Source: Candidatus Aminicenantota bacterium
Lineage (GTDB): Bacteria; Acidobacteriota; Aminicenantia; Aminicenantales; UBA4085
DNA: 64,000 nucleotides
Assembly (NCBI GenBank): GCA_003141555.1
Contig: PLMN01000003.1
Coordinates: 62,001-126,000 of the forward strand
Reading direction: 5' to 3'
The notes beneath the pieces were generated by a model. It did no database searches. It saw only the letters and a program-made list of their open reading frames with translations, and was not told the origin of the DNA. Within the stretch, counting starts at the first letter, position 1. Every line of letters begins with the position of its first letter. Positions 7,953-30,234 of this stretch are shown here, piece after piece. The translations under genes and the position numbers were made by a program.

Positions 7953-8353
7953 TCCGCGACTACTGGCCATATAATCGCGGTAGTCTTCGATGCTGAGCTG
8001 GACGCTCAACGAGATCAAGACGAGGCATCTTAAGAAGCCGACTAGCAAGCAAATTGGTATTCGCGATTTCCTACTTTGCGCGTGAACAATTTTAAAATTT
8101 CAATATATTCGTATGATCACAGGACTTTGGGACAAACTAGCTTTCTATTCGTCGTATGACTGATCTCATTTTTTTCAGCTTCCGAAAAGAAACCGGGAAC
8201 TTGAATCATAATTTGACTTTATTTCTATCGAAAATGTAAAATCTCAATAAAATGTGCTAACTTTCGGTTTCTATTTATTGAGTTAGCTAGCGCATATGAT
8301 AAAGAATCAATTGTTACAATGAATTCGTAGTACACGAAGAGGGGGCTCTTAGC
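7953..8353. other. Gene-free junction into the AT-rich island
   Basis: Composition changes within about 100 bases from GC-rich to AT-rich near 8050-8100. No integrase, tRNA or direct repeat is visible. A weak -10-like TACAAT lies at 8315-8320 without a convincing -35 box, and a ribosome site (AGAGGGGG) sits at about 8338-8345 before the methyltransferase ATG. One 16-codon ORF (from 8116) is not convincing. Confidence 0.6.
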
Positions 8354-9580
8354 ATGTCCAGGCTCAAGAATGGATATATTCCGAAAGTCCTTGCGACCGA
8401 ATATGCAAGTTATCGCGATACTGTGTTAAGAACTCTTATAACTAGATTAGAGACTGCCCAAGCCTCAATTTCACGGCCAATATCGATATATGATCCTATG
8501 GCCGGGACTGGGCCGCTTATTCCAGAAGTGGAGCGATCCGGCTATGTGGGTTATTTCAATGATTTGAATTCTTTACATCTATATGTTAATAAAGCAAAAA
8601 CTTATCGTTCATATAAAACTTTTAAAAGAATCGGATCTGCAACTTTATTAAAAAAATTATGTAATTTTACATCACGATTAGATCGGAATACACCTATGCC
8701 CACCGAAAAGTGGATAGATGATGTTTCGTTAAGAATTCTTTCGTCTGCGTGGAGTAGCTGCGAAGACGAAATTAAGCCCGTTACGATAATACTTAAAGCA
8801 ATAATACTTCTTTCAATTCGTGATTTTTCATCATTCGTAAAAACGAAGAATCCAACCTGGCTCAAACCCGGAGGAACTCGTCGAAATATAACTGTCGAAC
8901 AAGCCTTTTCATATGCTATAAATATGTTAGAGAATTATTATCAGCACACCTACTGCGGTTATCAGGCAATAAAAGGAGGGGAAATCAATTTGACGGATCG
9001 GGATTGTACTAAATATGTACCAAAGAGCGGAGTTGATATTGTTCTGACTTCGCCCCCATATTGCAACCGTGTAGATTGGGATCGTCTTTATGCGCCAGAA
9101 CATTATTTTTTAAGAGCCGTAGGAGTTTGGCATACAAGATGTGAGTTTATTGGTACGACTGCTGTTCGACATTACGACAACTTTGATTCCGATATCGCTT
9201 TTATCTCAGAACATTCAAAATATTTGAATATTTTTCTTACAAAAGTAAAAGAAAGACAAATTGGAAATGAGAAGAGATCAGATTATTACCTAAAGTATTT
9301 CACGCGATATTTCGCTGGCTTATTCAGAGTTTTCGAAGTCGCTGCTTCAAGTTTGCATAAAAATAATTTTGGCATCTACTTTGTTGTTCAAGATAATTGT
9401 CATCGCGGTATGTCTATCGATATTGGCCGGGTAATATCTCAATATCTTTCCATTAAAGGCTTCCAAACGCGTGTCCTTAAAATATGGAATCAGCATCATC
9501 TTGGAATGCGAAATATTTCTAGAAAATATCGAGCGGTGAATCCAAGGCAGCGAGAAAGCTTGTGGCACGCAATCAAATAA
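8354..9580 (+). CDS. SPPY-type DNA methyltransferase (amino-methylating, N4-C or N6-A)
   Basis: 408 residues. An AdoMet-binding motif I, DPMAGTG, is at residues 47-53, and the catalytic motif IV, SPPY, is at 233-236 in LTSPPYCNRVDW. The order I then IV matches α- or γ-type amino-methyltransferases; SPPY favours N4-cytosine but does not prove it. No target-recognition domain could be delimited, although 180 residues lie between the motifs. The gene is AT-rich, unlike the flanking chromosome. It overlaps the radical SAM gene by 19 bases, so the two are translationally linked. A methylated base in nucleic acid other than DNA cannot be excluded. No partner restriction gene is adjacent on this strand. 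Confidence 0.75.
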   Translation: MSRLKNGYIPKVLATEYASYRDTVLRTLITRLETAQASISRPISIYDPMAGTGPLIPEVERSGYVGYFNDLNSLHLYVNKAKTYRSYKTFKRIGSATLLKKLCNFTSRLDRNTPMPTEKWIDDVSLRILSSAWSSCEDEIKPVTIILKAIILLSIRDFSSFVKTKNPTWLKPGGTRRNITVEQAFSYAINMLENYYQHTYCGYQAIKGGEINLTDRDCTKYVPKSGVDIVLTSPPYCNRVDWDRLYAPEHYFLRAVGVWHTRCEFIGTTAVRHYDNFDSDIAFISEHSKYLNIFLTKVKERQIGNEKRSDYYLKYFTRYFAGLFRVFEVAASSLHKNNFGIYFVVQDNCHRGMSIDIGRVISQYLSIKGFQTRVLKIWNQHHLGMRNISRKYRAVNPRQRESLWHAIK

Positions 9581-10575
9581 TCGAACGAAATGAAAATTGG
9601 GGTTGCCTAAGATATAACACATCTTTGCATCAGTTTTCCTACACCGAGAAATTACCTAAAACAAGCGAACCTTACGCTAGTTTGCCAGTTGTGCTCAACA
9701 TAGTCATTTCCAGACGCTGTAATATGAATTGTAGATATTGTGTCGCTAAAGACTTTGCCGGAATTGTAAATGAAGACCTAATCCTTTCAAATGATTTGAT
9801 TAGATGGCTTAATAATTCGCCATTCATGCTTTTGGTGTTGACCGGTGGCGAACCACTCATGCCCCCATATGATGCAGTTTCGTTGCGCTTAATTAATTCC
9901 ATAAAAAGGCGGGGGATTATTATAGATACGAATGGCACTTGGCTTCCTGATCGCACTGTCCTAAATCAATTAAAAAAGCACAATGTCATGGTGCGAGTTT
10001 CGATGGATTCAATCAGCCCTGAAGAAGAAATTGAACAACGAAAAGTTGGGCGAGGACAAAAACTCGATGATCATTCTGCATATTATGAAAAACTAAATAA
10101 TATTTTAAAATTTCAATCTGCGGGCATTTGTACCGCCGTTCAGACGGTAATTTGGCGCTCAAATTCGAGCTCCCTTTATCAAATGATCTATTGGCTAGCA
10201 GATCATGGGATAAAGCGATGGTATCTTCAGCGATTAATTCCGTCCCATAGATTTAAAAAGCCTACAGGTCGTTTTGTATTAGAGAAGTCCAAATATTACA
10301 GCGAAGCAACTTCTATTGCGAAAAAAGCTCGCGCTGTTGGAATTGAGTGTGTCGCAAAAATGGATCTTAGGCACAATAGTGTTTTTCTGCTGACAGCCGA
10401 TGGTGAGCTTTATACTCAAGGAAATGCCCCGGGACAAAAGGTGCGGTTAGGGAGATTCCATGATATAAATAACTATTTTGACTATGTAAGTGCAGCTGAC
10501 CATGCATGTAGATATTATATTGCCGACGTGACTACGGAAGATCCAAAAACACGTCAGGGCATAGAGAAAGGCTAA
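9562..10575 (+). CDS. Radical SAM protein of unknown substrate
   Basis: 337 residues. The iron-sulfur motif CxxxCxxC is C53, C57, C60 (RRCNMNCRYC), and the AdoMet-binding LTGGEP is at about 94-98. There is no clear SPASM cysteine cluster at the C-terminus, only one late HACRYY. Residues 285-300 (FLLTADGELYTQGNAPG) resemble the end of the radical SAM barrel in peptide- or cofactor-modifying enzymes. The start overlaps the methyltransferase end by 19 bases. No small precursor peptide was found nearby, which argues against peptide maturation. A role in modifying a nucleotide or base is a guess from the neighbours. It is not viperin: the N-terminal motifs of that family are absent. Confidence 0.8.
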   Translation: MARNQIIERNENWGCLRYNTSLHQFSYTEKLPKTSEPYASLPVVLNIVISRRCNMNCRYCVAKDFAGIVNEDLILSNDLIRWLNNSPFMLLVLTGGEPLMPPYDAVSLRLINSIKRRGIIIDTNGTWLPDRTVLNQLKKHNVMVRVSMDSISPEEEIEQRKVGRGQKLDDHSAYYEKLNNILKFQSAGICTAVQTVIWRSNSSSLYQMIYWLADHGIKRWYLQRLIPSHRFKKPTGRFVLEKSKYYSEATSIAKKARAVGIECVAKMDLRHNSVFLLTADGELYTQGNAPGQKVRLGRFHDINNYFDYVSAADHACRYYIADVTTEDPKTRQGIEKG

Positions 10576-10657
10576 TTAGAAATTTTAATATTTGCTCCAA
10601 TAAATCATTGTTTAATTTTAAGTTTTATCATTTTGAAAACGAATTGAGGGGATAATA

Positions 10658-11629
10658 ATGACTGCACCGAACTTAATAAGTGATTGGGCGAATGGATTTG
10701 CGAAGCTGTATAGTAAGCAAGACCTAACTAGAAGTCCAGAAGAAATGTGGATTGCAACTATGGCGCATTGTAGTTCAATTGGGGAAGCAATCCGAAAATC
10801 AGATTATGTTGAGCTAATGTTTTTTGCATGCAAAGTTTTCTGCTGGATGCTATCATTTTCAGTTCGCATTAAAAAAGATCCACACCCCTTATTCCGTATC
10901 GATAATGAGTTTTGCGATATTGTGTATTTTAAATTCCCTGAGGTTTGTGGCCACTGTACGGATAGCCAATGTACTTGCCAACCAGTCGAAATGGATGCCA
11001 AGAAAGATAAAGCTGGGAAATACAAGAAACTTCTAGAGAAATGGGAAAGAGCCCATAGAGGCAAAGGTAATTCAACCAGTTATTCTATTGCTGATTGGTT
11101 AAAAATATTTACTGATATATATGGAGGTCGTATCCACCTTCAAACTCTTGAGACGCTTGGATTTCATTTTCTTGAAGAAGCGGGTGAAGAAGCGTTTGCG
11201 ATTCGAAAGTTAATTCAATTGAGAGGGGCTTTGGGGGCGAAGATAGCGGGGTTAGACGAAGCGAGTATCAAAAAATTGACGACTATACCGAATATCGCAA
11301 AAGCATATATTAGTCTTGGAAAAGGAAAGCTGGATGGTAAACCTCATTTTAAACTGAATGCAGCAACAAAAGAAAACATATTTAGTCGCATCGTGGATGC
11401 AAAAATGGATCTAATGATAGAACTTGCAGATGCATTTTCGTTTTTTTGTTCAATACTCATTAAGCTTAGTAAAGTCACCATAGCCGAAAATAAACATTTT
11501 GTTGCCGATTTAGAGAGTAGACTGATAAAAATGTATGGTGAGCCTAAGACAGGTTTAATTTGTCCTGAGTGCAAGAAGGATGTGTGCGATTGTTCCTTCT
11601 TTTCAAATATAGATGTTGTTGGAAAATAA
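10658..11629 (+). CDS. Cys-rich helical protein, possibly MazG-like
   Basis: 323 residues, largely helical. Residues 173-178 read EEAGEE and 255-258 ELAD, which resemble the EExxE and ExxD metal motifs of all-α NTP pyrophosphohydrolases (MazG/dUTPase-like). The gap between them, about 77 residues, is longer than in MazG, so this is a tentative match. Two cysteine clusters, CGHCTDSQCTC (about 105-115) and CPECKKDVCDC (near the C-terminus), look like metal knuckles. A good ribosome site (GAGGGG) precedes ATG 10658. It stands 82 bases after the radical SAM gene and 36 bases before the deaminase, in the same AT-rich cassette. If it hydrolyses a nucleotide, it would fit beside the dCMP deaminase. 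Confidence 0.45.
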   Translation: MTAPNLISDWANGFAKLYSKQDLTRSPEEMWIATMAHCSSIGEAIRKSDYVELMFFACKVFCWMLSFSVRIKKDPHPLFRIDNEFCDIVYFKFPEVCGHCTDSQCTCQPVEMDAKKDKAGKYKKLLEKWERAHRGKGNSTSYSIADWLKIFTDIYGGRIHLQTLETLGFHFLEEAGEEAFAIRKLIQLRGALGAKIAGLDEASIKKLTTIPNIAKAYISLGKGKLDGKPHFKLNAATKENIFSRIVDAKMDLMIELADAFSFFCSILIKLSKVTIAENKHFVADLESRLIKMYGEPKTGLICPECKKDVCDCSFFSNIDVVGK

Positions 11630-11665
11630 TCAATACTATTTATCCTATATTTCTATCAAAGAAAA

Positions 11666-13009
11666 ATGAGACCATCAAAAGACGAATATTATTTGAATGT
11701 CGCGGAGCAAATAGCACTCAGAAGCACGTGCATCAGGGCGAACTATGGTGCCGTTATTGTAAATAACGATCAAATTATTGCGACTGGATACAATGGTGCG
11801 CCGAGAAATACGCTTAATTGTATAGATGTAGGAACCGAATGCTATAGAAGTAAGCTTGCAATAAGAAGCGGTGAGAATTATGAACTATGTAGAGCTGTTC
11901 ATGCCGAACAAAATGCAATTATTGAAGCTTCAAGGATTGATATGTTGGGCGCGGCACTTTATTTAGTTTGTCTTGATGCTAAAACCAAGGAACCATATTC
12001 AAACTCTGAGCCGTGCCGCATATGTAAAAGATTCATTATTAATGCTGGGATAAATAAAGTAATTGCCCGCGTCACGAGAAATAGATTCAAGACGTACCAT
12101 GTCAGGAATTGGATCGATAATAATTTGTGGGAATATAGAAAGCGGGGGAGAAAAATTGTTCCTGTTGAAGCACCGCGAACACTTAGCGAAGCAGTAGATA
12201 TCATAAGGGCAAAGAAATTAATAAATCATTTTTCGCTTGCAGATGCTTTAGTTGTTCAATTACGAAGTGGGGAGATGGCAAAGCAAGCTATAGGAAGAGT
12301 TGCGGCTCGCTACTTTTTTAATAATGTTAAGAATATGAATTCTGTTGCTCTTTCTTGTGGAGACACAATACTTAGTATGCTTGAACATCTCCCATATCAG
12401 CCTCACCTTCAGCTAGTGATAAACCAATTGTCAATAGAAGGCGATCCTTCAATGATCCATCAAGCGCCTGCTACCCTTGTAGGTCTTCTCAGAGCGAAAT
12501 CTTCACCTAAATCGAAGGTTTTTGGCCTGCAGCTTCCTCCGCGTAATATGTTTAAAATTCCTTATAAAGTTGAGCAGGATGAATTCAATCCGCGATTAAT
12601 TAAAAAACTTTGGGCGGAAGCGCGTTGTTCAGAATACGCTTTCCTCGGGGTGGGTTCTGCTGCATCTGACTCAGCTAGTTTTTGGGCAATGGCTCAATCA
12701 GCGACTGAAGGAAGATTTTCAAAAATAGCAAAGAAAATTGGCATTATAGGTGAGATTAATAATCAGGTATTTAATGAAAATGGAGAAGATTGTTCTCATC
12801 TGATTCCCGGATTTGATAGTCATGTTGTTAATATTTTGAAATTAACTGATTTAAAATCAATGGCCAAGGACCGGTCGAAGCAAAAAGTCGTTTTGGTCGC
12901 AACTGGCGAGAGTAAAACAAAGGCTTTGCGAACCGCTTTAAAATATGGTTTTGCCAATGTTATAATTACTAGCCGAGAAGATGCCGATAGGCTATTAGAG
13001 AAAGAGTAA
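11666..13009 (+). CDS. dCMP deaminase domain fused to a SorC-type sugar-binding domain
   Basis: 447 residues. Residues 1-165 are a zinc-dependent (deoxy)cytidylate deaminase: HAE at 79-81 and PCRIC at 116-120, with the dCMP-deaminase-type insert SGENYELCRAVHAEQNAI before it. Residues of about 180-447 match the effector domain of SorC/DeoR-family regulators: VALSCGDTI, AFLGVGSAASDS, IGIIGEINNQVF, and the closing phosphate-site pattern VLVATGESKTKALRTAL...VIITSREDADRLL. The helix-turn-helix that normally precedes this domain is missing; the deaminase stands in its place. The SorC domain binds phosphosugars in known regulators, so it could sense a nucleotide or sugar phosphate here. It is the last gene of the + strand cassette. 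I know no characterised protein with this architecture. Confidence 0.8.
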   Translation: MRPSKDEYYLNVAEQIALRSTCIRANYGAVIVNNDQIIATGYNGAPRNTLNCIDVGTECYRSKLAIRSGENYELCRAVHAEQNAIIEASRIDMLGAALYLVCLDAKTKEPYSNSEPCRICKRFIINAGINKVIARVTRNRFKTYHVRNWIDNNLWEYRKRGRKIVPVEAPRTLSEAVDIIRAKKLINHFSLADALVVQLRSGEMAKQAIGRVAARYFFNNVKNMNSVALSCGDTILSMLEHLPYQPHLQLVINQLSIEGDPSMIHQAPATLVGLLRAKSSPKSKVFGLQLPPRNMFKIPYKVEQDEFNPRLIKKLWAEARCSEYAFLGVGSAASDSASFWAMAQSATEGRFSKIAKKIGIIGEINNQVFNENGEDCSHLIPGFDSHVVNILKLTDLKSMAKDRSKQKVVLVATGESKTKALRTALKYGFANVIITSREDADRLLEKE

Positions 13010-13274
13010 AAAGCGAATCGATAATATTTGATTATATTCAAAAGCCCTATTCAGGCGAATTGACATTCCAGCGAAAGCATACTCCTCTTTCGTCTTTACG
13101 CTTCCCGTGAGGGGGATGCGCCTATTCTGGAAGTCGAGTTTTTATAGATGGCCCTGGAGCTGATCGCCGGAGGGGCTCGAAGTTCCCTAAAAGGCTTGAA
13201 ATACTCCAACGGCCGTTTCAAAAAGATTGCGATCACTGGCGCCATTACGGATTATACTTTACTGATATTTTCTT
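13010..13274. other. Convergent intergenic region with a GC-rich patch
   Basis: The two halves of the island converge here. About 13060-13260 is clearly richer in GC than both sides. Open frames can be drawn through it on both strands, but none has a ribosome site or a recognisable sequence. It may be leftover chromosomal or mobile DNA between two separately acquired modules. Confidence 0.45.
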
Positions 13275-14210
13275 TTAATGATTTGATATTCTTGATGATT
13301 TATGTATGCAATCATGGCATAAAGTACAGAGTGTTTGTAGGTTTTCCTTCGTATTCTCTCCTCTTTCCACGTGGGGCTTTATGTGGTGAAGTTCTAAATG
13401 CCTGGGATCCGATGGATTCCATTCCTGATGCGTCCATCCGCAAGAGCTGCATTTATACGCATCTCGCCTGAGAACTTCTCTACGTACGGAGTCCGGAATA
13501 ATTCGGTCATGTTCATGACTCTGTCGATCCGCTTGAAGAACATATTCCCCGACCTGCAAATCAGGCCGCCCGGTATTCTTTGTCGCTATCGGCCAACCGT
13601 ATTCCGTACGTAGTTCCCTTATCCTTCGCGCCCATTCGGTTTTTTGATTAGCGACATATCTCAGCTCTTCCCCGCTAATGGGCTGTCCCACATTTTCTCT
13701 TAAAAACTCCAATATTTTATCTCGCACGGAAAGTCTTTTCCTCCTAATAATATTGGCCGTATTCCATCTGTGTGCGGCATCACGATCTTGGCGAGTACTG
13801 ATCAGAATATAATCATCCGGCTTCATAGATCCCAAATCATCTTCTCTAAGCGAGAAATCACCTTCAATATTCATTTGTTTTGCCGTTATCCCATTAATGA
13901 TCTTCCAACCGAGTTGAACTCGGAGTTCTCTAAGTCTTCGAGGCCATTCTTGAATTCCTGAAACTACTAATAATTCATCGCCTTTAATCACGGTTTGAGG
14001 ATATTTTTGGAAATAACGTAGGATTCGTTCTCGCGCGGAATTTGTTCCATCTACAAGAATTAAAGATTTCCCTAAATCACGTAGGCCGTGAAAAATGTCA
14101 ACCAATGCCAATACCTTCTTGCGAAGATCATGATTTTTAAGTTCAGATTCAAAATTCCGAATAAGATCTTCAATCTGATTTCTAAGAGATTCGGAATTCT
14201 TGCGGCTCAT
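13275..14210 (-). CDS. HNH endonuclease, probable restriction enzyme of the m5C system
   Basis: 311 residues from ATG 14210. The C-terminus (about 240-311) is an HNH nuclease: CSSC...LELHHIKP...ENLQTLCTLCHDCIH, with paired cysteines that would hold a structural zinc. Before it lie two copies of one domain, each with a xxxILxxxx...GxELxxV...EWxRRxRELRxxxGW pattern (about 77-125 and 170-225), probably winged-helix-like DNA readers. I chose ATG 14210 because it overlaps the vsr stop as ATGA and follows GAAGGGA; an upstream in-frame start would lie within vsr. The position next to vsr and an m5C methyltransferase makes it the likely restriction enzyme. Its target is unknown. Confidence 0.75.
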   Translation of the reverse strand: MSRKNSESLRNQIEDLIRNFESELKNHDLRKKVLALVDIFHGLRDLGKSLILVDGTNSARERILRYFQKYPQTVIKGDELLVVSGIQEWPRRLRELRVQLGWKIINGITAKQMNIEGDFSLREDDLGSMKPDDYILISTRQDRDAAHRWNTANIIRRKRLSVRDKILEFLRENVGQPISGEELRYVANQKTEWARRIRELRTEYGWPIATKNTGRPDLQVGEYVLQADRQSHEHDRIIPDSVRREVLRRDAYKCSSCGWTHQEWNPSDPRHLELHHIKPHVERGENTKENLQTLCTLCHDCIHKSSRISNH

Positions 14211-14641
14211 CGGCTTTTCCCTTCCGCGTCTTGCGGTAATAAAAAACGAGAGATTTTCGCTTTTAAGCAATCCGGGTTCCTAGTTTGGCATTCCCATATG
14301 ACTAAGTATTTCCAACCGATTTTACGTAATTGCCCTTGTTGATATTTGTCTCTCATAATATTTTCATTGAGCTTTTTATTCCAAAACTTCTTATTTGAAA
14401 CCGGCCGTTTTGAACGTCGGCATCCCGCGTGTCCATGCCAAAAACAACCATGAATGAAAATAACCTTCTTGTGTCTCTTAAGGACAATATCCGGATTACC
14501 CGGCAATAATTTCTGATAAATTCGGAAACGATATCCCATCCTATGAATAATCGATCTTACGGTTAATTCCGGTCGCGTATTTTCGCTTTTGACATGGCTC
14601 ATTATCCAACTGCGTTTGGTCGGCGAAAATACGTCCGCCAT
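14207..14641 (-). CDS. vsr: Very-short-patch mismatch endonuclease Vsr
   Basis: 144 residues, the normal Vsr length. It has the family start (MSHVKSENTRPELTVR), the catalytic region GNPDIVLKRHKKVIFIHGC and the zinc-site FWHGHAGC, then the conserved WKYLVIWEC. Vsr nicks beside T:G mismatches that arise when 5-methylcytosine deaminates, so it protects sites methylated by the adjacent enzyme. Its ATG directly follows the methyltransferase stop (TAG at 14642-14644), and its own stop overlaps the nuclease start. The trio is therefore one transcription unit on the - strand. Confidence 0.95.
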   Translation of the reverse strand: MADVFSPTKRSWIMSHVKSENTRPELTVRSIIHRMGYRFRIYQKLLPGNPDIVLKRHKKVIFIHGCFWHGHAGCRRSKRPVSNKKFWNKKLNENIMRDKYQQGQLRKIGWKYLVIWECQTRNPDCLKAKISRFLLPQDAEGKSR

Positions 14642-15868
14642 CTATTTCCGGTTCATCGAGAGGAGTAAAAGCACGACATCCGCGACGCGTGAGGCGAGTA
14701 GAGGCGGGACGGCGTTGCCAATTTGTCTTGCTATTTCGATTTTAGTGCCCGAAAAAATAAAATCATCCGGAAACGATTGAAGCCGAGCCGCTTCTCTATG
14801 CGTAATAGGCCGATGCTGTTTCGGATGAAGATATCGTCCCTTTTCGGGCTTGAAGAATTCGGTTCTTATGGTGAATGCGGGTCTATCCCACCAAAGTCGA
14901 CCGAAAAGATCGGTTCCCCCGGATTTTTTTCTTATCCAACATTGAGGCGTTAGTTCGGGAGCGTTTTTTTGAAGATCGAAACGATTCATTCCTTCATCGG
15001 GTATCGCCTTATATCTGGCAAGGCTTTCGCGGGTGGGAGTTCTTCCGAAATGTAGGTTGAAGGGAGGAGCCTCATTTCTTATTTCAGTCCCCTTGGGGGT
15101 CGGTAAGTCTCCAATTGCGTCCCTGACGGTTCTCCATTTCTGAGCATTGGGCATATATTCACCGAGAACGTTCACTAGATATTTTGGAGAAGATGACATC
15201 TTGTTGGGATTGTAATGTGTTTTTCTGGGGGGGAAGAGCATCCGAGGATCGGCGAATTTACATCCTACGATAATAGCCCTTTTCCTTGTTTGAGGTACTC
15301 CGAAATCGGCGGCGCAAAGAATATCTCCCCACACCTGAAATCCCAACGCCTCGGCTGCTCCCATTATTTCCGCATGTTCAAAAGAACCTAAAAGTTGGGG
15401 GACATTTTCCATTACGAATATTTCGGCCTTGGCGATCTCCACGATATTTAAAAAAGGCCGCCACAATTGTTTTCTGGGATCCCCTTCACGATTCTTATTT
15501 AATAGACTGAAACCTTGGCATGGTGGGCCGCCTATAACGACATCCGCCTCGGGAATGTGAGATCTTCCTGATCGCAGAATTTCATTGATATCGCCCGGAA
15601 CGCAATGATTACCGAAATTTACGTTATACGTATTTACACAATCTTCATTGAAATCATTGGCCCAAACGGACGTAAATAGATGGCCGCATCTTTCCGAAAA
15701 GCCGAGGGACATGCCTCCGGCACCGGAAAAAAGATCGATTAGGCGATAACGTTTTCTTTTCTTTACTAATTTGCCGGAATTCCTGGCCCCATAAATCCGT
15801 TCATCTTCCTTCAAGAACGAAGCGATTTTCGATTCAATCGAGTATGGGACTATTCTTGTTTTCGTCAA
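14642..15868 (-). CDS. DNA (cytosine-5) methyltransferase of a type II restriction system
   Basis: 408 residues with the ordered m5C methyltransferase motifs: I LFSGAGG (46-52), IV GGPPCQGFS (catalytic Cys about 116), VI ENVP (154-157), VIII QTRKRAIIVG, then a short target-recognition region and the closing RQIGNAVPP. The 38-residue leader before motif I is basic and unassigned. The gene is AT-rich, as are its neighbours vsr and the HNH nuclease downstream. It is transcribed away from the sigma-54 export locus, from the region 15869-16200. The recognition sequence cannot be read from the protein. Confidence 0.95.
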   Translation of the reverse strand: MTKTRIVPYSIESKIASFLKEDERIYGARNSGKLVKKRKRYRLIDLFSGAGGMSLGFSERCGHLFTSVWANDFNEDCVNTYNVNFGNHCVPGDINEILRSGRSHIPEADVVIGGPPCQGFSLLNKNREGDPRKQLWRPFLNIVEIAKAEIFVMENVPQLLGSFEHAEIMGAAEALGFQVWGDILCAADFGVPQTRKRAIIVGCKFADPRMLFPPRKTHYNPNKMSSSPKYLVNVLGEYMPNAQKWRTVRDAIGDLPTPKGTEIRNEAPPFNLHFGRTPTRESLARYKAIPDEGMNRFDLQKNAPELTPQCWIRKKSGGTDLFGRLWWDRPAFTIRTEFFKPEKGRYLHPKQHRPITHREAARLQSFPDDFIFSGTKIEIARQIGNAVPPLLASRVADVVLLLLSMNRK

Positions 15869-16200
15869 ATTATCAACTCGATGTAGAGGAAATCATGATG
15901 AGCAATCCATCATTTTCATTTAAGAGACGCTTGTTCTTCTTATCCTCGTCATATTAATTGAGAAATCGATCATATCGTTCTTTCCCATACGGCTCGTCCT
16001 AATTAGTAATACAATTATTTTTGGGTAAAAAGATTCCCATGCCCAAGTAATTAGTTGCTCGGATTAATTACACTAGTCCTTTCAGGTTCGTTTTAAATAT
16101 TACCACTTTTTGGTTAGCTTCCAAAGCATTCGGGAGAAGTAGGTAATATTCTCTTATTACTTGCGTATATAATCCCATTATTGCCACGTCATTTCTCCCT
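15869..16200. other. AT-rich divergent intergenic region
   Basis: This separates the methyltransferase (leftward) from the export locus (rightward) and is the right edge of the AT-rich island. No gene is seen. It holds the inverted repeat at 16096-16150 and presumably the promoter of the restriction set, which I could not fix with confidence. The GC content rises again from about 16200. Confidence 0.55.
16096..16150. promoter_or_regulatory. Inverted repeat, candidate activator site for the sigma-54 promoter
   Basis: AATATTACC (16096-16104) and its exact complement GGTAATATT (16142-16150) are 37 bases apart. They lie about 75-130 bases before the predicted start of transcription at about 16227, where enhancer-binding proteins usually bind. 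The site could instead serve the leftward restriction operon, or be a single wide operator. Confidence 0.4.
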
Positions 16201-16216
16201 TGGCACAAAACCTGCA
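16201..16216 (+). promoter_or_regulatory. Sigma-54 promoter of the export locus
   Basis: TGGCACAAAACCTGCA matches the -24/-12 consensus TGGCACRNNNNTTGCW at every defined position but one (C for the first T before TGC). Spacing of GG to GC is exact. Transcription should start near 16227, 33 bases before the TolC-like ATG, with a ribosome site (CGGAG) in between. This implies control by an activator of the NtrC type, none of which is encoded in the window. Confidence 0.72.
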
Positions 16217-16259
16217 CTATGTACCTTGAAATGCGATTTTCTGCATCCGGAGAACGATC

Positions 16260-17858
16260 ATGAAGAAATGGCGAAGAACGACCATAGCGCCGGCACTTGC
16301 GGCCGCGCTTATCCTCTTATCCCTCAGCGGGTTGCGAGCTGATCAAGCCGGCGCCCCCCCCACCGCCAAACCCGCCTCTCTCACCCTCGAGGACGCTGTG
16401 GTTCAGGCGGTACGGCGCAACCTCGGGGTGACGGCCCAGGTCTACAGCTTCCAGCAGGCCGACGACTCCGTGATCCAGGCCGGCGAGAAGTTCATCCCCT
16501 CGCTCTCGTTCCGGTTCAACCAGGAGAACATGAATTCGGCCTCCTATTCCTGGATGGACGCGAGCGACGTCACCATCACGAAGTCCGCGGTCGCCTCGGC
16601 CACCGTCACCCAACAGGGCCCGCTTGGCGGCAGCTTCTCGATCCAGCTCAGCGGCGACAAGTACGACACCAACAGCCGCTTCCAGACGATCAACCCCCGC
16701 TACGACGGCCAGCTTACCTTCAGTTACACCCAGCCCCTGCTCCGGAACTTCGGCTGGCAGACCAGCCGGCGGGACATCCTCGTCGCCCGCAACGGCCGGG
16801 ACATCGCCGAGAACACGCTCAAGAGCACCTTGCTCTCCACGATCTACTCGGTCGAGCAGGCTTACTGGAACTACGTCTACATGATCGAGTCGCTCAAGGT
16901 CGAGCGCCAGTCGCTCTCGCTGGCCGAGGCCCTGCTCGACAAGAGCCGCAAGGAGATCGCCATCGGCACTCTGGCCCCCAAGGAGATCCTTAGCTCCCAG
17001 GCCGAGGTGTCGTCGATCAAGGCCGACATCCTCCAGGCCGAGGAGGCGGTCAAGGACGCGGCCGACCAGCTCCGCGGCCTGATCAACACGCCTCTCGACA
17101 AGGAGCCGGCCGAGGTCGTGCCGGCCGACACGCCGGGCTTCGCCAAGCGCGACGTCACCCTGGACGGGGCGCTGGCCACGGCCTTCAAGTACCGGCCCGA
17201 CCTTCAATCCGGCGCGCTCGGGGTCCGCAACCAAGAGATCAACTGGTCCTACGCCAAGAACCAGATCCTGCCCCAGCTCGACCTGACGGCTCAGTACTGG
17301 AGCCCCGGCCTCTCGGGCGACCAGCTCATCTACCAGGACAACAACCCGCTGACCGGCGTCATCCTGGGTGTCATCCCGGGCGGCGCGTCCCAGGCCCTCA
17401 AAGACGCCATGGCCTTCAAGTACAACAACTGGTCGATCCAGCTCCAGCTCACCGTGCCTTTGAGCTCGATGTTCACGCGCGCGGCCGTGGCCCTGGCCCG
17501 GTCGGAGCTCGACCAGCAGATCGCGGCGATGAAGCAGACCGAGCAGACGGCGTACCTGGAGGTGCGGTCGGCGGTGCGCGCGGTCGAGACCAACTTCGAG
17601 CGCGTCGGGGCGCGCAAGGAGGCGCGGACGCTCGCCGAGCAGAAGCTCGATGCCGAGGAGGCCAAGCTCAAGGTCGGCCTGAGCAATAACTTCTTCGTGC
17701 TGAACTACCAGCGCGACCTGGCGCTCGCCCGAACGAACGAGCTGCGGGCCATGATCGACTATACGCTCTCGCTCGCGTTCCTGGACAAGGTGACGGGCGT
17801 CAGCCTCGACAAGCGGAATATCAAGATCGTCGATGCGGGCGAAGGAGCGATGAAGTGA
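16260..17858 (+). CDS. TolC-family outer membrane efflux protein
   Basis: 532 residues. A signal peptide (to about residue 27, LSGLRADQAG) precedes two homologous halves of long helices, the TolC/OEP pattern: LTLEDAVVQAVRRNLGV near the start and LDGALATAFKYRPDLQSG at mid-protein are the two repeats' opening motifs. It should form the outer membrane channel for the ABC exporter encoded next to it. It is the first gene behind the sigma-54 promoter, with CGGAG as ribosome site, and is followed after 14 bases by the adaptor-like gene. It is slightly longer than E. coli TolC, with Ala-rich helices. Confidence 0.9.
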   Translation: MKKWRRTTIAPALAAALILLSLSGLRADQAGAPPTAKPASLTLEDAVVQAVRRNLGVTAQVYSFQQADDSVIQAGEKFIPSLSFRFNQENMNSASYSWMDASDVTITKSAVASATVTQQGPLGGSFSIQLSGDKYDTNSRFQTINPRYDGQLTFSYTQPLLRNFGWQTSRRDILVARNGRDIAENTLKSTLLSTIYSVEQAYWNYVYMIESLKVERQSLSLAEALLDKSRKEIAIGTLAPKEILSSQAEVSSIKADILQAEEAVKDAADQLRGLINTPLDKEPAEVVPADTPGFAKRDVTLDGALATAFKYRPDLQSGALGVRNQEINWSYAKNQILPQLDLTAQYWSPGLSGDQLIYQDNNPLTGVILGVIPGGASQALKDAMAFKYNNWSIQLQLTVPLSSMFTRAAVALARSELDQQIAAMKQTEQTAYLEVRSAVRAVETNFERVGARKEARTLAEQKLDAEEAKLKVGLSNNFFVLNYQRDLALARTNELRAMIDYTLSLAFLDKVTGVSLDKRNIKIVDAGEGAMK

Positions 17859-19402: not shown

Positions 19403-20788
19403 ATGTTTAAGACGATCTTCAAGAAGGAGCTGCTCGACCAGATCCTCAGCCCCAAGTTCCTGATCGTCTCCCTGCTCTGCCTGGTCCTGGTGCCGGCCAG
19501 CCTTCTCCTCAACTCAGCCGGCTACGACGACGCCTTCCGGGAGTACGATGCGGCCCGCAAGGAGGCCGGGAATTCGACGGAGATCTTCCGGGAACCGAGC
19601 GCTTTGAGCGCATTCGGTATCGGCCTGGAAAACGTCATGCCGAAATCCGTCGTCTTTTCCAAATACCAGATGGAGGCCCGGGGGGCGCAGGTCCAAAGCG
19701 AAGTCCTCAGCAACATCAACGGCAAGATCGATTTTGTGGTCATCGTCAGCTTCCTTCTTGGTCTTATCGCCGTCCTCTACGCCGGGACGATGGCCTGCGA
19801 GGAGAAGGAGATCGGGACGCTCAAGCTAGTCCTGGCCAATCCGGTCAAGCGAAGCACGGTCATCGGGGCCAAGTTCGCGGGAGGCTTCAGCGTCCTCCTG
19901 ATTCCCTTCGCCCTCAGTACATTGATCGCCCTGCTGCTTCTCCTCGGCCAGGGATTCCCCATCTTCGCCTCCGGCAATGCGGCCCGGATAGCGGCGGTCA
20001 TCGTCCTATCGGTCCTCTACCTTGCAGCCATGTTTTCCCTGGGGCTGTTCATTTCCACCCGGACGCACAAGACGAGCCTGGCCCTCCTGGCCGGCTTCTT
20101 CGCCTGGATTTTCCTGACCTTTATCATTCCGAAGACCGGCGAACCCCTGGCCGGCCTCATCCGGCGGATTCCGAGCGAGGACGCCATGAAGGCCAACCGG
20201 GCCCAGGTCCGCAGCCAGATCGAAAAGGAAAAAGGAAAGGCCCTGGCTCCCCTGATGGAGAAGTATTTGCACGTTGACGGGCGAGGGAAGTGGGACTGGG
20301 ATGCCTATACGAAGGCCCGTGGGCCGGTGGCCCAGAATTACGAGGAACGGATCGACCAGACGCTCCAGAAGTTCGATGCGGCCTACGAACAAAAGAAAAG
20401 CGATCGCCGGAACCTCAGCCTCAATATCGCCCGCATATCGCCGGCTTCGGCGTTTACCCAGGCGGCCTTGAACTTCTGCGATACGGGCGTCGCCGATCTC
20501 GAAAATTTTTCGCGAAGTCTCCAAAACCACGGCATTCTGCTCTCCCGGGCCGTCTTCAAATACTCCTTCCAGGACACGTTTACGTCCGACGACGGAAAGA
20601 CCAATAGGTCCATGGGAGGAGCTTCGTCGCCGGAGGGCAAGATCGACTACCCGAAATTCCGCTATCAGTTCCCGGCTTTCGAGGAGACCCTGCGGGCCGC
20701 CGCGCCCGATCTCGTCCTCCTCATCTTCTTCAATCTCATCTTCTTCGCCGCCGCGTACGTTTCGTTCGGCGGCTACGACGTCCGTTAA
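19403..20788 (+). CDS. ABC-2 type permease 1 of the export locus
   Basis: 461 residues. It starts FKTIFKKELLDQI (an amphipathic stretch) and has a first membrane segment at about 22-40, an outer loop, then a core of about four segments. EEKEIGTLKLVLANP at about 132 is this family's cytoplasmic motif after the second segment. A second soluble region (about 255-425) with ISPASAF...DTG precedes the last segment and the ending YDVR. This is the ABC-2/NosY-GldF-like class. It comes just before the only ATPase gene of the locus. Confidence 0.85.
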   Translation: MFKTIFKKELLDQILSPKFLIVSLLCLVLVPASLLLNSAGYDDAFREYDAARKEAGNSTEIFREPSALSAFGIGLENVMPKSVVFSKYQMEARGAQVQSEVLSNINGKIDFVVIVSFLLGLIAVLYAGTMACEEKEIGTLKLVLANPVKRSTVIGAKFAGGFSVLLIPFALSTLIALLLLLGQGFPIFASGNAARIAAVIVLSVLYLAAMFSLGLFISTRTHKTSLALLAGFFAWIFLTFIIPKTGEPLAGLIRRIPSEDAMKANRAQVRSQIEKEKGKALAPLMEKYLHVDGRGKWDWDAYTKARGPVAQNYEERIDQTLQKFDAAYEQKKSDRRNLSLNIARISPASAFTQAALNFCDTGVADLENFSRSLQNHGILLSRAVFKYSFQDTFTSDDGKTNRSMGGASSPEGKIDYPKFRYQFPAFEETLRAAAPDLVLLIFFNLIFFAAAYVSFGGYDVR

Positions 20789-20805
20789 CCAAGGAGGTTA
20801 TCGAT

Positions 20806-21546
20806 ATGACGACACTTCAACCCATTCTCAAGGCGGACGACCTGTCCAAGCGCTATGAGGACGGCGTCCTGGCTCTCGACCACCTCAACCTGGAGGTCCG
20901 CGGGGGCGAGGTCTACTGCCTGCTCGGGGCCAACGGCGCGGGCAAGACGACGACGATCAACCTCTTCCTGAACTTCATCCCGCCCACCACCGGGACGTGC
21001 TTCATCAAGGGGATCGACGTCAACAAGGACCCGCTCGAGGCGAAGAAGTACGTCGCCTTCGTCTCGGAGAACGTCATGCTCTACGGCAACTTCACCGCCC
21101 GCCAAAACCTCGACTTCTTCGCCAAGCTGGGCGGCAAGCCGAACCTGACCAAGGAGCAGTACTATCAGGTCATGCGCCGGGTCTCGCTCCAGGAGAAAGC
21201 CTTCGAGCAGCGGGTCAAGACGTATTCAAAGGGGATGCGCCAGAAGCTCGGGATCTCGATCGCGATCATCAAGGACGCGGCCGGCATCCTGCTCGACGAG
21301 CCGACGTCCGGATTGGACCCCAAGGCCGCCGAGGAGTTCCAGGAGACCCTGGCCGAGCTCAAGGGCGAGGGTAAGGCCATCCTCATGTCCACCCACGACA
21401 TCTTCCGGGCCAAGGAAATCGGCGACCGGGTGGGGATCATGAAGGAGGGCCGCCTCGTCATGGAGCGGACGCGCGAAGAGCTCCAGTATGAGGACCTGGT
21501 CAAGATCTACATCGACTACATGAAGTCGGAACCGTTGACGGCGTAA
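20806..21546 (+). CDS. ABC transporter ATP-binding protein of the export locus
   Basis: 246 residues with all the motor motifs: Walker A GANGAGKTTT (about 43-52), signature YSKGMRQKLG, Walker B GILLDEPTSG and the switch His in MSTHD. It resembles the ATPases that pair with ABC-2 permeases. It stands after permease 1 and before permeases 2-8, and is the only ATP-binding cassette gene in this 15-kb locus. One ATPase homodimer would have to serve several different permeases. A ribosome site (AAGGAGG) is clear. Confidence 0.95.
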   Translation: MTTLQPILKADDLSKRYEDGVLALDHLNLEVRGGEVYCLLGANGAGKTTTINLFLNFIPPTTGTCFIKGIDVNKDPLEAKKYVAFVSENVMLYGNFTARQNLDFFAKLGGKPNLTKEQYYQVMRRVSLQEKAFEQRVKTYSKGMRQKLGISIAIIKDAAGILLDEPTSGLDPKAAEEFQETLAELKGEGKAILMSTHDIFRAKEIGDRVGIMKEGRLVMERTREELQYEDLVKIYIDYMKSEPLTA

Positions 21547-21571
21547 GGGGCGGGCGCCTTCGCCCCGCCCC
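21547..21571 (+). other. Strong GC hairpin after the ATPase gene
   Basis: GGGGCGGGCG and CGCCCCGCCCC pair around a CTT-type loop directly after the ATPase stop. There is no U-run, so it is not a standard terminator. It may stabilise the upstream mRNA or partly dampen readthrough into the following permeases. Confidence 0.5.
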
Positions 21572-21607
21572 CGCCCAGCCGCTCCGCTTCGCACTCTGGA
21601 GTCCGAC

Positions 21608-23050
21608 ATGTTGAAAAATATCCTCCGCAAGGAGCTGTTGGAGAACATCCACAGCTACAGATTTCCCCTGTTCGCCCTGATCTGCGTCGTCCTCATCCCG
21701 CTGGGCATGTCCGTCAACAACGCCCAGTACGCCAAGCGCCTGAAGGACTACAACGAGCAGGTCCGCCTGGCCGACGAGGCCCAGACCGGCCTCAAGATCC
21801 AGGACCTGATGGCCGGCCGCGTGACCATCAAGGGCTTCCGCCCGCCCTCGCAGCTCTCGGTCTTCTCCCAAGGCCTCGAAAACTCCCTCCCGCGCTACTA
21901 CCAGTTCGGCCAGGACGGGTATTCGCAAGGCGAGTCCTCGAGCGGTGACGAGACGCTGGCCTCCACGCAGGGCAAGTTCGATTTCGTCTTTCTCATTCAA
22001 ATGGTCATCAGCCTGGTCGGGCTGCTGTTCGCCTCGGACATGATCTCGGGCGAAAAGGAATCGGGGACCCTGCGAGCCATGCTGTCCAACAGCCTGCCGC
22101 GCGACGCCATCCTCCTGGGCAAGATCGTGGGTGGGTATCTGGCTCTGCTCGCGCCGTTTCTGGTGGCGCTCGTGATAGGCGTGCTCCTCCTGCTCCCGGG
22201 TGGGTTCCCGGTTTTCGCCGGCGGCACCCCCGCGCGCATCGTGGTGATGGCCGCGGCGGCCGCGCTCTTCATTTTGATTTATTACGTGATAGGAACGATG
22301 GTCTCGGCCACGTCGGCCAAGGCCCGGACGTCGCTGGTGGCCATCTTATTGATTTGGTGCGGCTTCCAGCTGGTCATCCCCAAGCTGTCCGACATCGCCG
22401 CAGCGCTGATCTATCCCGTCCGGACCGATACGCAGGTCTCGCTCGAGAAGTCGCTGCTCATCAACACGCTCGAGACCGAGTCGGCCAAGGAGCTGGGGCG
22501 CCAATTCGATTTGATCTTCGCCGGCGCTAAGCCCGATGCGCCCAACGATCCCAATTCGCCCGAATTTAAGAAATGGGCGCCGATCCGCGACGATCTCCAG
22601 CTCAAGACGCGCGAGCAGAAGGCCGCCCAGCTCGCGGCCATCGACGAGACGTTCCTCCAACAGCAGCGCCGCCAGCGGAGCCTGGCCGCGGCGCTGTCGC
22701 TCATCTCGCCGAGCTCCGCCTTCGGGAGGCTCGCGGCCGACATCTGCGGGACGGGCGACCTGGCCCGGACGAAGTACATCGAGGCGGTCCGCTCGCACCA
22801 GAAGGCGCTCGACAACGAGCTGTTCAGCAAGGTCAAGCGGACGCTGATGATGCACGACAACGGCCGGACGACGATGATGTTCAGCGCCGAGCCGGTGGAC
22901 CCCAAGAAGCTTCCCAAGTTCGCCATCGCGGACGCCTCGCTGGGCGAAGCGCTCAAGGCGAACGCGGCCAGCATCGCGGCGCTGCTCTTCTGGCTCATCG
23001 TGCCCTTCGCCTTCGCGTACGTGCGGTTCCTGAAATATGACGTGAGGTAG
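21608..23050 (+). CDS. ABC-2 type permease 2 of the export locus
   Basis: 480 residues. N-terminus ILRKELLENIHSYRF, then a hydrophobic segment ending VLIPLGMSV. The family motif SGEKESGTLRAMLSNSLPR is near 147, ISPSSAF...GTG near 366, and the end is FLKYDVR. Layout is the same as in the other seven: one segment, outer loop, four segments, about 170 outer residues, last segment. It lies 61 bases after the ATPase, beyond the GC hairpin. The closest relative in the window by eye is permease 4. Confidence 0.85.
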   Translation: MLKNILRKELLENIHSYRFPLFALICVVLIPLGMSVNNAQYAKRLKDYNEQVRLADEAQTGLKIQDLMAGRVTIKGFRPPSQLSVFSQGLENSLPRYYQFGQDGYSQGESSSGDETLASTQGKFDFVFLIQMVISLVGLLFASDMISGEKESGTLRAMLSNSLPRDAILLGKIVGGYLALLAPFLVALVIGVLLLLPGGFPVFAGGTPARIVVMAAAAALFILIYYVIGTMVSATSAKARTSLVAILLIWCGFQLVIPKLSDIAAALIYPVRTDTQVSLEKSLLINTLETESAKELGRQFDLIFAGAKPDAPNDPNSPEFKKWAPIRDDLQLKTREQKAAQLAAIDETFLQQQRRQRSLAAALSLISPSSAFGRLAADICGTGDLARTKYIEAVRSHQKALDNELFSKVKRTLMMHDNGRTTMMFSAEPVDPKKLPKFAIADASLGEALKANAASIAALLFWLIVPFAFAYVRFLKYDVR

Positions 23051-23092
23051 GGGCGTGCGCGAGGAAATAGGCGACTCCGAAAGAGAAATGAC

Positions 23093-24559
23093 ATGAGCGG
23101 CAAACGCGACCGCGATCACACATTCCGGGCGATCTTCCGCAAAGAGCTTCTCGAAGGCTTCGTCACGCGGCGGTTCCTCGCCGTCCTCGTCCTGTGCCTG
23201 ATCGTCTTCCCGGTGGGGAGCTATATGAGCCGGCGCGACTACCAGTCGCGCCTCCAAAACTATCAGGAAGCCCAGCGCCTCTACGAAAGCACGAAGAAGA
23301 CGGTTGGGTCCATTCTCTTTCAGACGGGAGGGGCCAAGGGCTTCCGCGCGCCCTCCGGCCTCAGCTTCCTGTCGACGGGCCTCGAGATCGTCTTGCCCGA
23401 CGCGGCCGAGACCGTCAAGAAGTACAACACGAACTATGCCGACATGCGCCTGACCAACGGCCAGGGGCTCGACAACCTCTACGGCTTCTTCCACGGCCCG
23501 CTCGACTTATCCTTCCTCGTGACCGTGGTCATGACCTTCCTGGCCCTGGCCTTCTCCTACAATGCGGTCTCGGGCGAGAAGGAGAGCGGCACGCTCGGCC
23601 TGATGCTGTCGAACTCGGTCCTGCGGTCGCGGATCGTCACCGCTAAAGCGGCGGCCCAGTTCCTGATGCTGGTCGTGCCGTTCCTGGCCGGCGTGGCCTT
23701 GAGCCTGGCGCTCGCCCCGCCCCCGGCCGCGGCGGCCGGCGCGGCCTCGCCCTGGCCGGCCGTGCTGACGGCGGTGGCCTTCTCGCTGCTGACCATCGCC
23801 GTTTTCTTCAACCTGGGCCTGCTGGTCTCGAGCCTGACCCGCCAGGCCGTCACGTCGATCGTCGTCCTCCTCCTCGTCTGGACGGCGCTCTTCGCCGTCG
23901 TGCCGCGGCTCAGCGTCATCGCCACGCGCCTCCTCGCGCCGGCGCCGTCCGAGCAGGCCTTCGCCCAGGAGAAGGCCCGCATCCGCCTGGCCAACGAGAA
24001 GGATTGCGAGGCCGAGGTCGACAAGCTCATCAAGGAAAACCCCATTCCGCAGGGTCGCGGCAACGGCTATCTGGAGTGGCAGAAATTGAGCGCCGATTTC
24101 CGGGCCAAGCAGGACGCGATCCGGGCCAAGTTCCAGGGCGACCTCATGGCGGCGGTGGACAAGGCCCGCCAGACTTACGAGCGCAAGCGCGACGCCCAGA
24201 TCCGGACGTCGATGCTCGTGTCGCGCGTTTCGCCCGTCAGCTGCTATGTCCGGTCCATGGCCGAGATCTCGGGGACCGGCTGGCTCGAATACAAGCGCTT
24301 CACGGCCGCGGCGGACCGGTTCCTGCGGACGCTGAACGACCAGGTTTACAGCAAGAATCAGTTCACGCGGATGGAGGGCGGGGCCATGATGAGCTTTACC
24401 GGCAAGGCCACCGATCCGGCGCCGCGGATGCCCGAGGTCCGCATCCCGTTCGGCGACGTGGCCCGCGACGTGCTGCCGGACCTCGTCCTGCTCCTCCTCT
24501 TCAACGCGCTCTTCTTCGCGGGGGCATTCGTCGCCTTCCTGCGCTACGATCCGAGATAA
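23093..24559 (+). CDS. ABC-2 type permease 3 of the export locus
   Basis: 488 residues. FRAIFRKELLEGF opens the protein, SGEKESGTLGLMLSNSVLR is near 160, VSPVSCY...GTG near 378 and the end is FLRYDPR. An Ala/Pro-rich turn (APPPAAAAGAAS) lies in the membrane core. The outer region between the fifth and last segments is charged and helical. It shares the order and spacing of motifs with its neighbours but only modest overall identity, so these are old paralogues and not recent copies. It stands 15 bases before permease 4. Confidence 0.85.
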   Translation: MSGKRDRDHTFRAIFRKELLEGFVTRRFLAVLVLCLIVFPVGSYMSRRDYQSRLQNYQEAQRLYESTKKTVGSILFQTGGAKGFRAPSGLSFLSTGLEIVLPDAAETVKKYNTNYADMRLTNGQGLDNLYGFFHGPLDLSFLVTVVMTFLALAFSYNAVSGEKESGTLGLMLSNSVLRSRIVTAKAAAQFLMLVVPFLAGVALSLALAPPPAAAAGAASPWPAVLTAVAFSLLTIAVFFNLGLLVSSLTRQAVTSIVVLLLVWTALFAVVPRLSVIATRLLAPAPSEQAFAQEKARIRLANEKDCEAEVDKLIKENPIPQGRGNGYLEWQKLSADFRAKQDAIRAKFQGDLMAAVDKARQTYERKRDAQIRTSMLVSRVSPVSCYVRSMAEISGTGWLEYKRFTAAADRFLRTLNDQVYSKNQFTRMEGGAMMSFTGKATDPAPRMPEVRIPFGDVARDVLPDLVLLLLFNALFFAGAFVAFLRYDPR

Positions 24560-24574
24560 GGCCGGGGAGACGCC

Positions 24575-26035: not shown

Positions 26036-26090
26036 AGGGCGCGATGCGAAATGCGGCGAAACTGTGCGAGCGGTTGAGAGGAGAAGGGCG

Positions 26091-27416: not shown

Positions 27417-27420
27417 GCCG

Positions 27421-28815: not shown

Positions 28816-28819
28816 GGCC

Positions 28820-30079: not shown

Positions 30080-30082
30080 AAT

Positions 30083-30147
30083 GGAGACACAATACCTATT
30101 ACCCTATTTCCCTTTCTTCCCAGTGGAGCGGCAGGGTGTGATTAAAT
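30083..30147. repeat. Truncated copy of palindromic repeat family A
   Basis: It begins with the family end GGAGACACAATACCTATT directly after the permease 7 stop and has no matching right end of its own; a second left end starts at 30148. It is therefore a half copy or a copy interrupted by insertion of the next one. Confidence 0.7.
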
Positions 30148-30219
30148 GGAGACACAATATCAATTTCCTCATTTCCAGGAGCCTAATCTGGAAAATAGGG
30201 AAATAGGTATTGTGTCTCC
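30148..30219. repeat. Palindromic repeat family A, copy between permeases 7 and 8
   Basis: 72 bases. The left end is GGAGACACAATAT, one or two changes from the family end, and the right end is its complement GGTATTGTGTCTCC (30206-30219). As RNA it would fold into a long hairpin inside the export transcript, so it may affect how much of permease 8 is made. The ribosome site of permease 8 lies just after it. Confidence 0.8.
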
Positions 30220-30234
30220 AAATTGGAGATGGAT

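What the first reader, a model, noticed from the sequence alone, without database searches (positions are those of the whole stretch)
9562..10575. Radical SAM gene overlapping a DNA methyltransferase by 19 bases
The overlap implies coupled synthesis of the two enzymes. No SPASM cluster and no precursor peptide are seen, so usual peptide roles are unsupported, while base modification is open.
Basis: partly seen in the sequence, partly recalled or inferred. Interest (0 to 1): 0.52.

Follow-up and report, generated by a model that had tools for sequence, protein, structure and literature searches.

The report
Orphan radical-SAM gene in defence-like island
A radical-SAM enzyme gene of no recognised family overlaps a DNA-methyltransferase gene at the head of a foreign-looking four-gene cluster that also encodes a DNA-building-block deaminase, which hints at nucleotide or DNA chemistry rather than peptide maturation but proves neither.

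Summary
A 337-aa radical-SAM ORF (9562-10575) overlaps a TSPPY-type DNA methyltransferase ORF (8354-9580) by 19 bases, with no SPASM cysteines and no convincing precursor ORF. The pair opens a co-directional four-gene run in an 8-kb low-GC island. ORF3 (10658-11629) belongs to no family. ORF4 (11666-13009) is a dCMP-type deaminase fused to a SorC/DeoR sugar-binding domain. A Vsr/C5-methyltransferase/HNH module faces the run.

The radical-SAM protein is an orphan. PADLOC calls it pVip, but that profile hits 203 of 247 sampled genomes of the phylum. The curated viperin model gives 60 bits against a cut-off of 180, several viperin-invariant residues are missing, and the tree cannot place it. Its modelled fold ties between viperin and the RiPP maturase SkfB.

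The methyltransferase-radical-SAM pair recurs in 0 of 79 distant methyltransferase relatives, so coupling is not shown beyond this locus. ORF3 plus deaminase is seen once more (G022), apparently without this radical-SAM gene.

Best reading: an acquired, defence-type nucleotide/DNA cassette with an unclassified radical-SAM enzyme, substrate unknown. Peptide maturation is less likely but not excluded.

The parts
8000..16150 (.). low-GC island (37-50% G+C in 500-base windows) inside a 58-69% G+C chromosome; edges approximate
   Evidence: composition profile
8354..9580 (+). DNA methyltransferase-like ORF1, 408 aa, DPMAGTG ... TSPPY
9562..9580 (+). 19-base overlap of ORF1 and the radical-SAM ORF, if the GTG at 9562 is the start
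9562..10575 (+). orphan radical-SAM protein, 337 aa, CxxxCxxC, no SPASM
10658..11629 (+). ORF3, 323 aa, no known family; two CxxC...CxC knuckles; EExxEE and ExxD motifs resembling MazG-type NTP pyrophosphohydrolases by eye only
11666..13009 (+). ORF4, 447 aa: dCMP-type deaminase (HAE, PCxxC intact) fused to a SorC/DeoR-type sugar-binding domain
13275..14270 (-). HNH endonuclease (neighbouring module)
14207..14641 (-). Vsr mismatch endonuclease (neighbouring module)
14642..15868 (-). C5-cytosine DNA methyltransferase (neighbouring module)

Best explanation
Shown: an island of foreign composition carries a co-directional run of DNA methyltransferase, orphan radical-SAM protein, ORF3 and deaminase-SorC fusion. 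Inferred: the run is one transcript forming a defence-type, nucleotide/DNA-directed cassette. The radical-SAM enzyme, which has a viperin-like fold without several residues conserved in viperins, alters a nucleotide or nucleoside (less likely a base in DNA). The deaminase, gated by a SorC/DeoR domain that would sense a deoxyribose phosphate, and ORF3 (perhaps a MazG-like NTP pyrophosphohydrolase) change the dNTP pool. The methyltransferase marks host DNA. Substrate and order of steps are unknown.
For: Sharp GC drop at both edges. Four same-strand genes with gaps of -19, +82 and +36 bases and no terminator-like site on the + strand between 7900 and 14700. Radical SAM. Deaminase-SorC fusion with intact HAE and PCxxC, full length in none of the other 246 genomes searched, while its deaminase domain is related to the stand-alone deaminases hit there. 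ORF3-deaminase adjacency repeated in another family of the phylum (G022). Viperin among the two best fold matches (Z 19.5, 234 aligned, rmsd 3.1). GRG...H at the viperin position in this protein and 3 of 4 pVips, 0 of 74 other radical-SAM rows. A Vsr/C5-methyltransferase/HNH module beside it. Six prokaryotic viperins were fetched: four have a nucleotide-kinase gene just upstream, two do not.
Against: No relative of the whole cassette was found, so its unity rests on gene order at one locus. The radical-SAM protein is no more like pVips than generic radical-SAM proteins are (rank 49 of 75 and 27 of 75 for the two halves). G022 has ORF3 and deaminase but only generic radical-SAM matches (best 2.4e-5), although its contig ends inside ORF3. 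MazG likeness of ORF3 failed every statistical test. SkfB, a peptide maturase, ties with viperin in fold. No activity data.
Confidence: 0.4

Rival explanations
1. Stacked modules: the methyltransferase(-radical-SAM) genes and the ORF3-deaminase unit are independent defence or selfish genes that landed side by side in an island hot spot; the overlap is incidental packing.
For: ORF3-deaminase occurs in G022, where only generic radical-SAM matches are found. Methyltransferase relatives have other partners: a DUF262-like gene in 17 of 80 loci, a HEPN-like gene as well in 12 of 80, and a radical-SAM gene in 0 of 79. A further restriction-type module lies next door.
Against: Four same-strand genes with short gaps and an overlap; the G022 contig ends inside ORF3, so what lay upstream there is unseen. 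The methyltransferase relatives are only 20-30% identical over most of their length, so they may not represent this subfamily.
Confidence: 0.3
2. DNA base modification: the radical-SAM enzyme and the methyltransferase act in turn on the same base in DNA.
For: Overlapping genes, DNA methyltransferase motifs, nucleotide enzymes downstream.
Against: No DNA-acting radical-SAM relative found; no recurrent pairing; no paper on such a pair in the searches made.
Confidence: 0.14
3. True prokaryotic viperin making ddh-nucleotides.
For: PADLOC pVip 3.4e-21 over 226 of 257 positions; fold match; GRG...H.
Against: 60.4 bits against a cut-off of 180; the PADLOC profile hits 203 of 247 genomes and 12 of 14 controls; lacks the H of NxH, the N of KxN, the K of RWK, GxN and ExN, all found in 6 of 6 pVips. 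The tree neither supports nor rejects it (p-AU 0.43).
Confidence: 0.06
4. Peptide or protein maturase that has lost SPASM, with a distant or unrecognised substrate.
For: SkfB Z 19.5 and SuiB 18.5, tied with viperin; MftC is among the best BLAST relatives (25.7%); the N-terminus weakly resembles a SPASM-type protein (z 2.6).
Against: No precursor-like ORF beside it; no SPASM cysteines; neighbours are nucleic-acid and nucleotide enzymes.
Confidence: 0.1

Closest known systems
Prokaryotic viperins (pVip; NF038283, PADLOC PDLC02903)
   Same: radical-SAM core without SPASM, similar size, best-tied fold match, GRG...H motif, nucleotide enzymes nearby
   Different: far below the curated cut-off; lacks several residues invariant in 6 fetched pVips; no nucleotide kinase beside it; no tree support
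RiPP radical-SAM maturases (SkfB, SuiB, MftC)
   Same: radical-SAM core; SkfB ties with viperin in fold; MftC among the best BLAST relatives
   Different: no SPASM or auxiliary-cluster cysteines, no precursor ORF
PADLOC MTase_II PDLC03224 / phrog_18146 DNA methyltransferases, some next to DUF262- and HEPN-like genes
   Same: DPxxGxG, (T/S)SPPYC and flanking conserved stretches in the same order
   Different: 19-24% identity to the aligned representatives; the partner here is a radical-SAM gene
dCMP deaminases (ComEB; anti-phage dCTP deaminase NF041025) and SorC/DeoR sugar-binding domains
   Same: both domains recognised, catalytic motifs kept
   Different: the two are fused here; the fusion was not seen full length in the 246 other genomes searched

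Membership tests
prokaryotic viperin | score over the curated NF038283 cut-off (180 bits) | tested here: not met
   60.4 bits; 0 of 247 sampled genomes of the phylum pass
prokaryotic viperin | residues invariant in 6 fetched pVips: N and H of NxH, H after GR(G/A), N of KxN, RWK, G(Q/E)N, ExN | tested here: not met
   alignment: this protein keeps the N of NxH, the H after GRG, and RW; lacks the H of NxH, the N of KxN, the K of RWK, GxN and ExN
prokaryotic viperin | groups with pVips in a tree | tested here: inconclusive
   long end branch 1.76, no starred set; p-AU 0.43 for joining pVips, 0.38 for MoaA, 0.076 for NirJ
prokaryotic viperin | converts an NTP to a ddh-NTP | not testable with these tools
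   needs biochemistry
SPASM peptide maturase | C-terminal SPASM cysteines and a precursor gene nearby | tested here: not met
   cysteine list; small ORFs
radical SAM superfamily | CxxxCxxC and PF04055 over cut-off | tested here: met
   50.4 bits against a cut-off of 29.5; Cys53, 57, 60
amino DNA methyltransferase (N4-C or N6-A) | SAM motif and SPPY catalytic motif | tested here: met
   residues 47 and 232; target base not testable here
MazG-like NTP pyrophosphohydrolase (ORF3) | PF03819 or a profile match | tested here: not met
   no MazG match at E 10 for either half (one unrelated DUF226 row); in the own genome PF03819 finds only another gene; hhalign probability 0.3%; motifs by eye only
dCMP deaminase | PF00383 with HAE and PCxxC | tested here: met
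   66 bits against a cut-off of 25; motifs

The most novel reading that the evidence does not exclude
A new kind of nucleotide-directed immune cassette: a radical-SAM enzyme outside the viperin family makes a modified nucleotide, a deaminase carrying its own deoxyribose-phosphate sensor and a nucleotide hydrolase clear the competing pool, and a paired DNA methyltransferase protects or marks the host genome.
Probability: 0.18. Interest if true: 0.78.

Novelty: new variant of a known kind. Interest (0 to 1): 0.4.

Why it matters
If the cassette acts as one, it would extend nucleotide-based antiviral chemistry beyond viperins and deaminases and show a radical-SAM enzyme working with a DNA methyltransferase. 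It also shows that a PADLOC 'pVip' label can fall on a protein that fails the curated viperin model.

Tried and rejected
Viperin by profile: rejected as proof, because the same profile hits 203 of 247 genomes and 12 of 14 control genomes and no sampled genome passes the curated cut-off. The listed matches mostly end by profile position 200, while this protein runs to 226; but a home-made pVip profile did not favour it.

Close relatives: none of the radical-SAM protein in genome contigs or viral contigs with single-protein patterns, nor in phages; plasmid matches stay at or under 28% identity; 1 of the 395 other phylum genomes at E 1e-12 or better, and that relative (G115) has unrelated neighbours. 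Viral relatives found with an alignment are 24-35% identical over short stretches. ORF3: none in plasmids, phages or viral contigs; one partial relative in 297 phylum genomes. Methyltransferase: 4 viral loci, none with a radical-SAM neighbour by BLAST.

ORF3 structure prediction failed (pLDDT 39). Internal repeat of ORF3 not significant (46 of 500 shuffles reach the score). MazG profile-profile test negative, with only five template sequences. N-terminal likeness to SPASM proteins too weak to use. Repeats at the island edges gave nothing like attachment sites. The GRG...H test was chosen after seeing the sequence, and several of the 74 comparison rows are partial or poorly aligned there. Literature: no held paper on this gene set in the searches made. 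For papers I saw search listings for all, and passages of four: PMC11185175, PMC10732462, PMC12839542, PMC10853773. The roles of individual viperin residues, and the names DUF262 and HEPN for methyltransferase neighbours, are recalled and come from no call.

Full report
Observation. The window holds ORF1 (8354-9580, +) and a radical-SAM ORF (9562-10575, +) that share 19 bases. The radical-SAM domain is certain (PF04055, 3.7e-13). ORF1 is below Pfam's cut-off but matches methyltransferase families in PADLOC (5.5e-10) and PHROGs (6.8e-12), and keeps DPMAGTG and TSPPY. The overlap rests on the GTG at 9562; the next in-frame starts would remove it. The protein has seven cysteines, three of them in CxxxCxxC, so no SPASM set, and no convincing precursor ORF lies beside it.

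Setting. The 500-base windows from 8000 to about 16,000 have 37-47% G+C and the one at 16,000-16,499 has 50%; the flanks have 58-69%. Inside lie, on the + strand, ORF1, the radical-SAM gene, ORF3 and ORF4, with gaps of -19, +82 and +36 bases and no + strand terminator-like site between them. On the - strand lie a C5 methyltransferase, Vsr and an HNH nuclease. ORF4 is a dCMP-type deaminase (66 bits) fused to a SorC-type sugar-binding domain (83 bits) whose best NCBIfam relative is the repressor DeoR, far under its cut-off (61 of 420 bits). In 247 genomes of the phylum, 33 including the own genome have a match to ORF4 at E 1e-25 or better; only the own genome has the full fusion, and it also has a second, separate deaminase on another contig. 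ORF3 matches no family (PHROGs gave one row at E 0.096).

Relatives. The radical-SAM protein has no close relative in what could be searched: genome contigs by exact 8-residue patterns, viral contigs, phages, plasmids (at or under 28% identity), and 396 genomes of the phylum (one other match at E 1e-12 or better, 29%). The phylum is probably Acidobacteriota: a sampled contig of it, G339:C145, has the same length, 139,835 bases, as a named Acidobacteria contig; this is an inference. ORF3 has one partial relative in 297 genomes: G022, where the last 56 residues, with the CxxC...CxC knuckle, precede a stand-alone deaminase 43% identical to ORF4's first domain. The contig ends there. G022 shows only generic radical-SAM matches (best 2.4e-5).

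Is it a viperin? PADLOC says pVip at 3.4e-21. The control is telling: the same profile reaches E 1e-15 or better in 203 of 247 genomes and rings in 12 of 14 control genomes. The curated viperin model gives 60.4 bits against 180, and 12 of 247 genomes have other radical-SAM proteins that score better on it, all under the cut-off. I fetched six plasmid-borne pVips, five annotated as viperin and one as a moaA/nifB/pqqE family protein. A profile of them ranks this protein 49th of 75 (first half) and 27th of 75 (second half) among non-pVip radical-SAM proteins. Aligned to them it keeps the N of NxH, GRG...H and RW, but lacks the H of NxH, the N of KxN, the K of RWK, GxN and ExN. GRG...H itself is found in 3 of 4 pVips and 0 of 74 other rows, a motif chosen after the fact. 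In a 79-row tree pVips form one supported group and this protein a long orphan branch. Joining it to pVips, MoaA or G115 is not rejected (p-AU 0.43, 0.38, 0.41), to NirJ nearly so (0.076); the tree has little power here. So the membership claim fails, while 'works like a viperin' stays possible.

Fold. A model with a 23-row alignment has mean pLDDT 68.6, 82-95 in the core blocks 71-150 and 171-220, and is poor at 1-41 and 304-337. Re-aligned PDB matches are led by viperin (Z 19.5, 234 residues, 3.1 A) and the RiPP maturase SkfB (Z 19.5, 262 residues, 3.3 A); viperins fill most of the top twelve, with SuiB at 18.5. Differences under 1 are ties, so fold does not choose between a nucleotide and a peptide substrate.

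ORF3. By eye it has EExxEE (residue 173) and ELAD (residue 255), as in MazG-type pyrophosphohydrolases, and two CxxC...CxC knuckles. Pfam at E 10, hhalign and an internal-repeat test (46 of 500 shuffles as good) do not support it, and its model was unusable. I treat it as unknown, MazG-like at best.

Reading. The neighbours speak for nucleotide or DNA chemistry and for a defence island. The ORF3-deaminase link is independently seen once; the methyltransferase-radical-SAM link only here. My leading account is one acquired nucleotide/DNA-directed cassette (0.4), closely followed by stacked modules (0.3). Base modification in DNA by the pair is possible (0.14) without any specific evidence. Interest is moderate: an orphan enzyme in a telling place, but one locus and no substrate.

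Noticed in passing
19403-31662: Eight ABC-2 type permease genes on the same strand (19403, 21608, 23093, 24575, 26064, 27421, 28820, 30223), each matching PF12679, with a single ABC ATPase gene (20806-21546) among them.
   Followed up: partly
11666-13009: dCMP-type deaminase fused to a SorC/DeoR sugar-binding domain without a helix-turn-helix match; the full fusion was seen in none of the 246 other genomes searched.
   Followed up: partly
13275-15868: C5 methyltransferase, Vsr and HNH nuclease in a row on the - strand, facing the radical-SAM run: a restriction-type module.
   Followed up: no
L194:4442-7323: Rhizobium plasmid with two abutting radical-SAM genes followed by a gene annotated pyrophosphatase; its sequence has MazG-like EExxE and ELAD motifs by eye.
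   Followed up: no
L196:3989-7613: Parabacteroides plasmid with a radical-SAM gene between a (d)CMP kinase gene and a dehydrogenase and hpt gene: another radical-SAM gene among nucleotide genes.
   Followed up: no
L059:7857-11017, L061:6834-10008: Viral contigs carrying the same methyltransferase family with DUF262-like and HEPN-like genes (names recalled) directly downstream, a set also seen in 12 of 80 genome loci.
   Followed up: partly
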